NCBI RefSeq assembly: GCF_017094465.1
Contig: NZ_CP064791.1
Coordinates: 1,922,001-1,986,000 of the forward strand
Reading direction: 5' to 3'
Source of the DNA: Halapricum desulfuricans
Lineage (GTDB): Archaea; Halobacteriota; Halobacteria; Halobacteriales; Haloarculaceae
DNA length: 64,000 nucleotides
The notes beneath the pieces were generated by a model, which was not told where the DNA came from, did no database searches, and was given only the letters and a program-made list of their open reading frames with translations. Below are positions 16,720 to 47,807 of this stretch, piece by piece (within the stretch, counting starts at the first letter, position 1; the number at the start of each line of letters is the position of its first letter). The position numbers and the translations under genes are program-made.

Positions 16720-16794
16720 GGGTTCGTGGTCTAGATCGGTTACGACACCTCCTTGACATGGAGGAGGCCGACGGTTCAAATCCGTCCGAACCCA
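16720..16794 (+). tRNA. tRNA-Val (GAC)
   Basis: 75-nt cloverleaf. The acceptor arms GGGTTCG (16720-16726) and CGAACCC (16787-16793) pair perfectly, with A as the discriminator base. The anticodon stem is CCTCC/GGAGG around loop TTGACAT, giving anticodon GAC (valine). The T arm holds GACGGTTCAAATCCGTC. CCA is not encoded beyond the first C/A. No intron is seen. The HNH gene ends 45 bases beyond it on the other strand. Confidence 0.95.
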
Positions 16795-45505: not shown

Positions 45506-46402
45506 TCACTCGACGTCACGGCGCTCTATCATGCGCTGGATCTCGTTGACTTTGGCGGCCTGTTGCTCGTTTGCGGCGGCGATCTCCTCGATCTCCTCGG
45601 CGACGCGCTCGGCGGATTCGGCGGTCTCGTCGACCATGCTCGCGACTTCCTCGGTCGAAGCGGCCTGGTCGTCGGTGGCTTCGGCGACCTCTTCGGCGCC
45701 CTGGGCGGCTTCGCTGACGGCCTGGTCGATCTTCCGGAGGATCTCGACGGCTTCCTCGACCTGGTCGATCCCCGATTCGACCTGTTCGTTGGCTTCCTGG
45801 ATGGATTCGACGGTACGCTCGGTGTCGCTTTTGATGTCCGCGACCATCGATTCGATCTCCGCGGCGTTTTGCTGGGATTCCTCGGCCAGTGACTTCACCT
45901 CGTCGGCGACGACGGCGAACCCTTCACCCGCTTCACCCGCACGGGCGGCCTCGATCGAGGCGTTCAACGCCAGCATGTTGGTCTGGTCCGCGATGTCGTT
46001 GATCACGTCGACGATCTCGTCGATCTCGTCGATGCGATCGCGAAGTTGCGTGACGTCGTCGCTGACCTCCTGATTCGCGTCGTCGACCGACTCCATCGCG
46101 TCGATCGCCTCGTCGGCGACGCCCCGGCCGTCGTCCGCGAGTTGCCGGGCCTGTTCGCTGATCGCTTTCACCTCGTTGGCGCTCGATGCGACTTCCTCGA
46201 CGGTGGCGCTGAGATTCGACACCTCGCCGGCAACCTCGCGCATGTTGTCCGACTGGTCCTGTGCGAGGTCGCTGATCTGCTGGGAGCTGTTCGAGACGTT
46301 CTCGGACGCGCGAAGCAATTCGTCGATTGCGCCCCCGAGATCCGCCGCCTCGACGTCGTCCGTCCCGAACTCGTCGTCGAGACCACCCATATCTGAAGCC
46401 AT
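45506..46402 (-). CDS. Soluble methyl-accepting chemotaxis transducer
   Basis: 298 residues, no TM helix: only the coiled-coil signalling domain. The hairpin tip IADQTNMLALNASIEAARAGE is the conserved CheA/CheW contact. Acidic and rich in Glu/Gln, suggesting methylation sites. Haloarchaea have such cytoplasmic transducers; the ligand sensor, if any, must lie in the short N-terminus or a partner protein. Confidence 0.9.
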   Translation of the reverse strand: MASDMGGLDDEFGTDDVEAADLGGAIDELLRASENVSNSSQQISDLAQDQSDNMREVAGEVSNLSATVEEVASSANEVKAISEQARQLADDGRGVADEAIDAMESVDDANQEVSDDVTQLRDRIDEIDEIVDVINDIADQTNMLALNASIEAARAGEAGEGFAVVADEVKSLAEESQQNAAEIESMVADIKSDTERTVESIQEANEQVESGIDQVEEAVEILRKIDQAVSEAAQGAEEVAEATDDQAASTEEVASMVDETAESAERVAEEIEEIAAANEQQAAKVNEIQRMIERRDVE

Positions 46403-46620
46403 ATATCGGTATTCGCGGGTCCCGGCTGATTAAACGTGACTCCGCAGTTATCAGGGCTGATAGAACTCGCTGAAGGGGATATCGGACAAACGAATCTCGT
46501 GTAACGCGCGCTATCGTGGTGATCCAGCCCCGACAGCAGTCGTGGACGAGCGAACGAGCGACGCGAGTGAGCGAATCAGCTGGAGAGGCGTGTACCGATG
46601 CGGCTGCTATATGGCTGTGC

Positions 46621-46693
46621 GTTGTTGTGGCGGTACGGTTGCTGTGGCGGTGCGGTTGCTGTGGCGGTGCGGTTGCTGTGGCGGTGCGGTTGC
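46621..46693 (+). repeat. 17-bp tandem repeat
   Basis: Four units of GTTGCTGTGGCGGTGCG: the first (46621-46637) differs at two bases, the next three (to 46688) are identical, and a partial fifth follows. 17 is not a multiple of 3, so the repeat is not coding. Confidence 0.9.
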
Positions 46694-46708
46694 GGAAAAG
46701 CAAGCATA

Positions 46709-46765
46709 CGGCGACGGAGTCGCCGTTTCCCCGGAATCGCCCTCTAAGGCGATTCCGGCATTTTT
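46709..46765 (+). other. Hairpin pair with T-run, terminator-like or small RNA
   Basis: CGGCGAC-GGA-GTCGCCG, then a perfect 10-bp stem CGGAATCGCC (46732-46741) and GGCGATTCCG (46748-46757) with loop CTCTAA, followed by TTTTT at 46761-46765. A stem plus T-run resembles an intrinsic terminator on the plus strand, but no plus-strand gene ends here. It may be part of a structured RNA or of a repeat family. Confidence 0.55.
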
Positions 46766-46832
46766 CCCCAAGTTTTTGCGATGAGGATTCCCGCAGCGAG
46801 CGTCGTGGCGCTCGCGAGGAAATCCGAAGAGG

Positions 46833-46837
46833 AAAAA
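46833..46837 (-). terminator. T-run after tfb
   Basis: Minus-strand TTTTT begins 8 bases after the tfb stop codon. T-runs of this kind end transcription in haloarchaea. A GCGAGCG/CGCTCGC stem lies a little further along (46795-46814). Confidence 0.5.
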
Positions 46838-46844
46838 GTGGTTC

Positions 46845-47807
46845 TCAGGCCATCGCGATGCCCTGCTCGGCTTCGAGCAGTTCGTGATAGCGGTTTCGGA
46901 TCGTGACCTCGGAGATGTCCGCGACCTCCGAGACGGCGGCCTGGGTCGTCTTCTCGTTGGTCAAAAGCGAGGCGGCGTAGACCGCGGCGGCGGCCAGTCC
47001 GACGGGCGATTTCCCGGAGTGGACGCCCTGTTCTTTGGCGTTAGTCAGCAGTTCGCGAGCGCGGTGTTCGGCCTCCTCGGAGAGGTCGAGGTCGCTTGCA
47101 AACCGGGGGACGTAGCTCTCGGGGTCGGCGGGCTTGACTTCCAGGCCGAGTTCGCGGACGACGTACCGATACGTGCGGGCGATCTCGTCTTTGCCCACGC
47201 GAGAGACGTCCGTAATCTCGTCGAGGCTTCGGGGGACGCCGGCCTGGCGTGCGGCGGCGTACACCGCGGAAGTCGAGACGCCCTCGATGGAGCGTCCGGG
47301 CAGTAGATCCTCGTCGAGTGCACGGCGGTAGATCACTGAGGCGGTCTCGCGGACGTTCTCGGGCAGGCCAAGCGCGGAGGCCATCCGGTCGATCTCGCCC
47401 AGCGCCTGCTTGAGGTTGCGCTCTTTGGAGTCCCGGGTCCGGAACCGCTCGTTCCACTTGCGAAGGCGCTGCATTTTCTCACGCTGGTTGCTGGACAGGG
47501 AGTTGCCGTAGGCGTCCTTGTCGCGCCAGTCGATGTTGGTTGAGAGCCCCTTGTCGTGCATCATGTTCGTGGTGGGGGCACCCACGCGGCTCTTCTCGTC
47601 TTTCTCCTTGGAGTCGAACGCGCGCCACTCCGGCCCGCGGTCGATCTCGTCGGCGTCGACGACCAGTCCGCAGTCGTCACAGACCGTCTCCCCACGGGCG
47701 TCATCGGCGACGAGATTACCCCCGCATTCCGGACAGGTAAGGTCGTTCTGTTCGTCGGTTTCCGATTCTACTGTCGATCGTGATCGCGTGCGTGTTGACT
47801 CACTCAT
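46845..47807 (-). CDS. tfb: Transcription initiation factor TFB
   Basis: 320 residues from ATG at 47807; a longer frame upstream has no family features. Zinc ribbon C25, C28, C43, C46 (TCPECGG...CDDCGLV), B-reader region, and two cyclin repeats. Recruits RNA polymerase to TBP-bound promoters. Haloarchaea have several TFB genes, so a numbered name is not given. A promoter with TATATAAA-like bases is visible upstream (47891-47904). Confidence 0.95.
   Translation of the reverse strand: MSESTRTRSRSTVESETDEQNDLTCPECGGNLVADDARGETVCDDCGLVVDADEIDRGPEWRAFDSKEKDEKSRVGAPTTNMMHDKGLSTNIDWRDKDAYGNSLSSNQREKMQRLRKWNERFRTRDSKERNLKQALGEIDRMASALGLPENVRETASVIYRRALDEDLLPGRSIEGVSTSAVYAAARQAGVPRSLDEITDVSRVGKDEIARTYRYVVRELGLEVKPADPESYVPRFASDLDLSEEAEHRARELLTNAKEQGVHSGKSPVGLAAAAVYAASLLTNEKTTQAAVSEVADISEVTIRNRYHELLEAEQGIAMA

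What the first reader, a model, noticed from the sequence alone, without database searches (positions are those of the whole stretch)
46530..46830. Composite repeat and hairpin island beside tfb
A 17-bp tandem repeat, a dispersed-looking segment, and three stable hairpins, one with a 10-bp stem and T-run, occupy one gene-free stretch. No plus-strand gene ends here, so the terminator-like hairpin has no obvious client. It may be a mobile repeat (MITE-like) or a structured small RNA.
Basis: partly seen in the sequence, partly recalled or inferred. Interest (0 to 1): 0.5.

Follow-up and report, generated by a model that had tools for sequence, protein, structure and literature searches.

The report
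Stop-codon-hugging terminator repeats in haloarchaea
The odd stretch beside the tfb gene is one copy of a folded DNA repeat scattered through the genomes of salt-loving archaea, which often sits directly against the ends of genes, carries probable transcription-stop signals on both strands, and sometimes lies between duplicated gene ends as though it had been inserted.

Summary
The island (46703-46841) is one copy of a ~140-nt repeat that I found neither in Rfam nor in ten paper searches. In tfb sense: P1, a long hairpin closed by T5/A5; GGGGAAAAA; hairpin P2; GGAAAC; hairpin P3; GTATGCT. Model R1 gives 26 hits in this Halapricum genome, hits in 140 of 195 genomes of its order, and 50 of 392 of its phylum, all 50 in that order. 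P1 covaries strongly in copies outside the training set. Of 156 copies, 75 begin within 5 nt of a same-strand stop codon (random points ~2%), 5 abut tRNA ends, 147 have T5 on both strands. T5C is a proven terminator in Haloferax volcanii. I read it as a two-way transcription terminator that spreads among gene ends: sister species show empty sites, 38 of 156 copies have long flanking repeats, and arrays reach ten units. Reverse transcriptase (1 of 195 genomes) and Y1 transposase (missing from eight element-rich genomes) do not explain the movement. Termination and mobility are inferred; no RNA data were available. The 17-bp tandem repeat is a C-rich tail, found after 20 of 84 copies checked.

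The parts
46703..46841 (-). complete repeat element in tfb sense: P1 - GGGGAAAAA - P2 - GGAAAC - P3 - GTATGCT
   Evidence: other copies in own genome; copies side by side; P3 pattern: 10 places, nine following an R1 hit in the same orientation, the tenth 184 nt beyond one on the other strand; the window copy itself has GGAAAC and is not matched by that pattern
46761..46841 (-). P1, long hairpin closed by T5/A5; best-scoring R1 hit in the own genome (83 bits; it was in the training set)
46832..46837 (-). T5C in tfb sense, 8-13 nt after the tfb stop; predicted tfb terminator
   Evidence: sequence; T5C terminates 95% in H. volcanii (PMC7237163 passages)
46731..46758 (+).
   Evidence: hairpin + T4 or longer on this strand in 153 of 156 copies
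46761..46766 (+). T5C on the + strand after P2; a second T5 at 46773-46777
46708..46726 (+). P3 hairpin, 8-bp stem
46612..46693 (-). 17-bp tandem repeat (GCAACCGCACCGCCACA in tfb sense): C-rich low-complexity tail after P3
   Evidence: such tails in 20 of 84 copies with a recognised P3 end versus 26 of 1116 control windows
46470..46844 (.). approximate extent of DNA absent from the sister genome G002 at this site
   Evidence: by eye from the printed sequences
46845..47807 (-). tfb (TFIIB-like) gene whose stop codon the element abuts

Best explanation
The island is a copy of an interspersed, structured element of Halobacteriales that acts as a two-way transcription terminator at gene 3' ends. 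For the gene in sense (here tfb) it puts a T5 tract, often T5C, just after the stop codon. For a gene arriving from the other side, where there is one, it offers a stem-loop (P2) followed by T5 and then a second T5. SHOWN by computation: family membership, covarying P1 fold, T5 on both strands, stop-codon and tRNA adjacency of about half the copies, sites occupied in one species and empty in another, flanking duplications of gene ends, and tandem arrays. INFERRED: that RNA polymerase stops there, that termination is why copies are kept, and that copies arise by insertion that duplicates part of the gene end so that the gene stays whole. NOT EXPLAINED: what moves it, and why the P1 fold is conserved although T5 comes before the hairpin on both strands.
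For: R1: 26 hits in own genome, 140 of 195 genomes of the order, own included, 27 of 31 named genomes, 50 of 392 genomes of the phylum, all 50 within the order. Covariation on copies outside the training set (61 rows, 60 distinct): score 0.252 versus 0.077 shuffled and at most 0.057 when slid; 187 cells changed on both sides versus 64. Position: 42 of 96 plus 33 of 60 copies start within 5 nt of a same-strand stop of an ORF of at least 100 codons; random points 51 of 2265 and 25 of 1356. Five more abut a tRNA 3' end. The P3 end lies within 5 nt of a convergent stop in 15 of 61 and 3 of 23. T5 on both strands 88 of 96 and 59 of 60. Opposite-strand hairpin plus T4 or longer: 153 of 156 versus 6 of 535. 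The T5/A5 pairs are almost invariant (four of five in 56-60 of 60 rows, the fifth 50 of 60) while many neighbouring pairs change on both sides. T5C gives 95% termination in vivo in H. volcanii (PMC7237163, passages). Spread: tfb site occupied in G000, remnant of another subtype in G001, empty in G002; L061 site occupied in G000 and G001, empty in G002 and G003. Flanking repeats scoring 20 or more: 31 of 96 versus 13 of 600, and 7 of 60 versus 0 of 600 mismatched pairs.
Against: No transcript data. Predicted sense 3' UTRs of about 10 nt are far shorter than the H. volcanii medians of 58 or 97 nt. 76 of 156 copies abut neither a stop codon (5 nt) nor a tRNA. Sense T5 is followed by C in only 53 of 96 and 34 of 60. 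R1 rewards T5/A5, and all 156 copies were found with R1, so part of the T5 counts, the opposite-strand T-run included, is built in. Five own copies lack a sense T5 (L051, L061, L064, L065, L068). The contrast comes mainly from the T-run: random windows of this GC-rich DNA also fold (median -13.8 versus -21.6 kcal/mol), and only 87 of 156 hairpins reach z -1.5 against mononucleotide shuffles. Copies are not independent: orthologous sites and tandem units are counted separately. Some empty sites could be deletions: at the L004 site G003 lacks only P1 and G001 lacks P1 and P2, and the L051 site in G002 keeps CCCACTTT. In G003 and G004 tfb has no element but also another neighbour, so these are no clean empty sites.
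Confidence: 0.68

Rival explanations
1. The copies are transposase-free mobile repeats (like the SMRs or PATEs of Haloquadratum) whose position at stop codons only reflects where insertions are tolerated; termination is incidental.
For: Dispersed copies, empty sites and flanking repeats; 76 of 156 copies are not at a gene end by my criteria.
Against: Tolerance alone would spread insertions along intergenic DNA, yet 42 of the 51 copies with a sense stop within 30 nt lie within 5 nt of it; T5 pairs stay nearly fixed while many neighbours covary.
Confidence: 0.2
2. A retroposon copied by reverse transcription: one precise end, one variable end and variable target duplications resemble target-primed reverse transcription.
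For: Among the 31 copies with a repeat scoring 20 or more, the upstream repeat ends 0-6 nt before P1 in 30, while the downstream repeat starts 0-156 nt after P1.
Against: RVT_1 (PF00078) is found in 1 of 195 genomes of the order and not in the own genome, while 3 of 14 control genomes ring. In one search the upstream repeat ends 7-8 nt before P1 in 4 of 7, so the precision is not perfect.
Confidence: 0.03
3. A REP-like element moved by IS200/IS605-type (Y1) transposases.
For: Hairpin DNA at gene 3' ends; Y1_Tnp in 115 of 195 genomes including the own one.
Against: G028, G149, G161, G167, G118, G181, G009 and G038 (all about 99% complete) have 10-22 R1 matches but no Y1_Tnp match; IS605-type elements are reported to leave no target duplication (PMC3119063 passages), whereas 38 of 156 copies are flanked by long repeats.
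Confidence: 0.05
4. An ancient cis-element inherited with its genes, whose flanking repeats come from slippage at hairpins and whose sequence is homogenised by gene conversion.
For: Same sites occupied in several species, with flanking repeats more alike within than between species in four of five comparisons, e.g. 77/77 within versus 61/71 between (the fifth pair is of nearly identical sequences); tandem arrays; four host-gene groups shared by G004 and G058, of different families.
Against: Sites occupied in one species and empty in another; the window copy is closer to copies in G004 (84-90%) than to other own copies (77%); host genes are very diverse, 103 Pfam families over 68 proteins.
Confidence: 0.12
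5. A small RNA or RNA processed from 3' UTRs.
For: Covarying structure.
Against: T5 precedes P1 on both strands, so the hairpin would be made only on read-through; no Rfam match; no RNA data.
Confidence: 0.1

Closest known systems
Short mobile repeats (SMR-A/SMR-B) of Haloquadratum walsbyi (PMC3119063, passages and section 25 read)
   Same: 80-110 bp, no transposase, terminal inverted repeats (as P1 alone has), up to 54 copies per genome, mobilisation unexplained.
   Different: SMRs give no target duplication and SMR-A preferentially enter IS605/PATE palindromes; these elements often abut stop codons and tRNA ends, and 38 of 156 lie between long repeats. Sequences could not be compared.
PATEs (palindrome-associated transposable elements) of Haloquadratum (same paper, passages)
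   Same: Non-coding, palindromes.
   Different: PATEs are related to IS605-type transposons and give no target duplication; here at least eight genomes rich in the element lack Y1_Tnp.
REP/BIME elements of bacteria (PMC12306157 passages read; the RAYT link is recalled)
   Same: Extragenic palindromes, some of them just downstream of ORFs.
   Different: About 140 nt with three hairpins, T5 on both strands, often flush with the stop codon, no dependence on Y1 transposase seen.
T5C terminators of Haloferax volcanii (PMC7237163 passages read)
   Same: Same sequence signal at gene ends; hairpins upstream of 503 termination sites there.
   Different: Here the signal is part of a repeated element on both strands, 8-13 nt after the stop at tfb rather than 58-97 nt median.

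Membership tests
MITE | terminal inverted repeats over the whole element | tested here: not met
   5' end CCACTTTTT and 3' end GTATGCT are unrelated; only P1 alone has inverted ends (by eye)
MITE | short target duplication of fixed length | tested here: not met
   flanking repeats about 20-117 bp, not found in 118 of 156 copies at the score used
MITE | transposon with matching ends in the genome | not tested
   no search for a partner with matching ends was run
SINE-like retroposon | reverse transcriptase available in the genome | tested here: not met
   PF00078 in 1 of 195 genomes, not in the own one
REP moved by RAYT/Y1 transposase | Y1 transposase present wherever elements are numerous | tested here: not met
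   eight genomes with 10-22 R1 matches and no PF01797 match
archaeal transcription terminator | T5 (T5C) after the gene end | tested here: met
   T5 on both strands 147 of 156, partly built into the search; sense stop within 5 nt in 75 of 156
archaeal transcription terminator | RNA 3' ends at the site | not testable with these tools
   no RNA data
Rfam family | match to a known RNA family | tested here: not met
   only a tRNA at 16720-16794 in the window; none at E<=1 in 46400-46900
SMR (Haloquadratum) | no target duplication; insertion into IS605/PATE palindromes | tested here: inconclusive

The most novel reading that the evidence does not exclude
A mobile terminator: a structured DNA element that copies itself to the 3' ends of genes by an unknown route needing neither reverse transcriptase nor Y1 transposase, duplicates some 20-117 bp of the gene end so that the gene stays whole, and in return gives the genes on both sides a strong stop signal; the duplicated ends then seed tandem arrays and evolve in concert.
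Probability: 0.35. Interest if true: 0.78.

Novelty: new variant of a known kind. Interest (0 to 1): 0.6.

Why it matters
How archaea stop transcription between tightly packed genes is still being worked out, and small transposase-free repeats of haloarchaea have no known mover. A family of ready-made bidirectional terminators that appears and disappears at defined gene ends between sister species gives natural with/without pairs for testing termination, antisense transcription and the origin of 3' UTRs, and poses a clean question about an unknown insertion mechanism.

Tried and rejected
MITE: rejected for lack of whole-element terminal repeats and of a fixed target duplication. Retroposon: I held this for a while because one end looked precise and the other variable; rejected because RVT_1 is in 1 of 195 genomes. 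Y1 transposase as necessary mover: rejected. Plasmid or virus cargo: one plasmid record (Haloarcula rara, 39% of the query covered) and no phage record; IMG/VR: no match to one pattern, three to another, of which two had no R1 match and one a weak one (18.3 bits). P3 as a separate repeat: rejected, all 10 places lie close to an R1 hit. tfb as a conserved host gene: rejected, among 85 tfb-like loci R1 hit only L162 (the own one) next to tfb; the L250 and L251 hits lie 1.4 kb and more beyond the tfb match (the decayed remnant in G001 was not picked up by R1 and was seen by eye).

Rows dropped: A2 used 28 of 34 extracted cores; six of other shape were left out (L024, one of L002, L007, L010, L012, L037). 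One search used 96 of the 115 copies reported for five genomes (26; 38, 13, 13 and 25); copies of G003, G005, G024 and G213 were not used there. One search took 60 rows from the top of the capped list, leaving out G000, G002, G058 and six further rows. One search scanned 68 of the 83 upstream proteins listed; the 15 left out were mostly homologues of others in the set, so its family counts understate recurrence. P3-based counts rest on the 84 of 156 copies in which a P3 end was recognised. A start-sequence check recognised 41 of 60 starts as CCAC with at most one mismatch; many of the rest have other, compensated ends. The 61 rows of A4 include one reading of the opposite strand of L323.

Full report
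What is in the window. The stretch 46530-46830 holds a 17-bp tandem repeat (46612-46693, 4.9 copies, 92%) and, to its right, three hairpins (46708-46726, 46731-46758, 46761-46841). On both strands 46695-46850 folds better than all 200 shuffles (z -3.45 and -4.86). The stretch lies between two - strand genes, one starting at 46402 (chemotaxis-receptor-like by my reading, not searched) and tfb ending at 46845. Rfam has no match there. The genus is Halapricum: H. hydrolyticum has an identical tfb protein, and its genome gives R1 matches at the same coordinates (for example C8:57727-57804) as G003, which is of the same genus as the window.

It is a repeat family. BLAST found seven places in the own genome, the window's own included, and matches in 27 of 59 genomes, the own one included. 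Laid side by side in tfb sense typical copies share: CCACTTTTT, a long hairpin (P1) with the stretches TCGGGT.TCCTCGC and GCTGCGGG.ACC.CTC, then AAAAACnTGGGGAAAAA, hairpin P2, GTGAAAC or GGAAAC, hairpin P3 and GTATGCT; P2, P3 or the ends vary or are missing in others. A model (R1) from 28 copies gives 26 matches in the own genome, with 150 of 3124 candidates scored, so this may be a lower bound; matches in 140 of 195 genomes of the order, own included; in 50 of 392 genomes of the phylum, all 50 in the order (stricter filters, 12 candidates per genome); and in 27 of 31 genomes of named species, with 42 in Halorientalis persicus, 38 in Salinibaculum litoreum, 32 in Haloarcula rara, and none in Natrinema altunense, Natrialba chahannaoensis, Natrarchaeobius chitinivorans and Natronorubrum bangense (names).

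The structure is real. In the training copies 13 of 30 pairs change on both sides. In 60 further regions of 37 genomes, none of them in the training set (61 rows, 60 distinct, one of them an opposite-strand reading), 19 of 30 pairs do, with a covariation score of 0.252 against 0.077 for shuffles and at most 0.057 for slid partners (this alignment was fitted to the model and leans towards it). The T5/A5 pairs hardly vary (four of five in 56-60 of 60 rows, the fifth 50 of 60), while the short closing helix and many inner pairs change together. Pairing alone would not fix T5, so the tract looks constrained in its own right; but R1 rewards T5, so this is partly built in.

Position. Of 156 copies (96 from G000, G001, G002, G004 and G058; 60 from other genomes), 75 start within 5 nt of a same-strand stop codon of an ORF of at least 100 codons (42 of 96 and 33 of 60), against 51 of 2265 and 25 of 1356 random points. 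Five start within 3 nt of a tRNA 3' end, and 14 loci have a same-strand tRNA ending within 250 nt upstream. The P3 end lies within 5 nt of a convergent stop in 15 of 61 and 3 of 23 copies. 76 copies abut neither a stop nor a tRNA at their 5' side. Upstream genes are diverse: 103 Pfam families over 68 proteins, TFIIS-like most often with 5. Four gene groups, including a thermosome-like one, carry the element in both G004 and G058, which belong to different families.

Terminator signals. T5 occurs on both strands in 88 of 96 and 59 of 60 copies; T5C in sense in 53 and 34, in antisense in 81 and 28; control windows have T5 in 14 and T5C in 7 of 1920. On the opposite strand a hairpin (MFE -8 or lower in 48 nt) ends within 8 nt of a T4 or longer run in 153 of 156 copies against 6 of 535 windows; the contrast comes mainly from the T-run, since random windows here also fold (median -13.8 versus -21.6), and 87 of 156 hairpins reach z -1.5. 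In Haloferax volcanii T5C placed in a reporter stopped 95% of transcripts, and median 3' UTRs are 58 or 97 nt by two methods (PMC7237163, passages). At tfb the element would make a 3' UTR of about 8-13 nt. On the + strand no gene arrives, so that side has no client here.

Spread. At the tfb site the own genome has a full element, G001 a decayed P1 of another subtype directly after the stop, and G002 nothing; G003 and G004 have no element but also another neighbour there. The site of L061 is occupied in G000 and G001 and empty in G002 and G003. At other sites empty states may be deletions: at the L004 site G003 lacks only P1 and G001 lacks P1 and P2, and at the L051 site G002 keeps CCCACTTT. 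Flanking direct repeats scoring 20 or more occur in 31 of 96 copies against 13 of 600 mismatched pairs and in 7 of 60 against 0 of 600. The upstream repeat ends 0-6 nt before P1 in 30 of 31 of the first set (15 nt in the other), and at 0 nt in three and 7-8 nt in four of the second set; the downstream repeat starts 0-156 nt after P1. The repeated DNA is often the 3' end of a gene or tRNA. Repeats are more alike within than between species in four of five comparisons (for example 77/77 within versus 61/71 between at the L061 site), which points to gene conversion. Tandem arrays occur; in Salinibaculum litoreum ten 171-bp units, alike but for the last few bases of the tenth, combine the element with a gene end. 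The window copy is closer to copies in G004 (84-90%) than to other own copies (77%), which suggests exchange between species.

What moves it. Reverse transcriptase RVT_1 is in 1 of 195 genomes. Y1 transposase is in 115 of 195 but missing from at least eight genomes with 10-22 R1 matches. One plasmid and no phage record match. Other transposases and integrases were not tested.

Known or not. Ten paper searches listed nothing that, from titles, abstracts and the passages I opened, describes this element; the library holds open-licence papers only, and supplements could not be read. The nearest kinds are the short mobile repeats and PATEs of Haloquadratum walsbyi (PMC3119063, passages and one section) and bacterial REPs (PMC12306157, passages). 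A paper on repeated G-quadruplex motifs concerns another family in methanogens (PMC8044849, abstract and passages).

Verdict. The element is a widespread structured repeat that probably ends transcription on both strands and that has probably spread among gene ends. Termination and the route of spread need experiments.

Noticed in passing
L373 989-2698 (Salinibaculum litoreum, G547 C1 2703788-2705497): Ten 171-bp tandem units, alike but for the last bases of the tenth, each joining the element to the 3' end of the convergent gene; related gene-end duplications occur at what looks like the same gene in Halapricum genomes (L055/L056, L119, L135).
   Followed up: partly
window 46547-46574: GAGCGAACGAGCGACGCGAGTGAGCG-type low-complexity word; similar GAGCGAAGCGAGC words also fill the variable stems of many element copies.
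   Followed up: no
L012, L031, L034, L036, L037, L040, L024: Some copies carry an extra module after P2 (such as GGAGTGCAACGACGTGAACGTCGTCAGAGC..GCTCTGACGG) or, in L024 and L040, inserted hairpins within P1, as if stem-loops are swapped as modules.
   Followed up: no
L049, L057, L064, L065: tRNA (Phe, Val, Lys) genes end 140-155 nt upstream of the element in L049, L057 and L065; in L049, L064 and L065 a 22-25 nt copy of a tRNA 3' end sits 0-2 nt before the element.
   Followed up: partly
L166 (G004 tfb 3' side): Where the element is missing after tfb in G004, a T5C (TGTTTTTCC) lies within about 15 nt of the stop codon.
   Followed up: no
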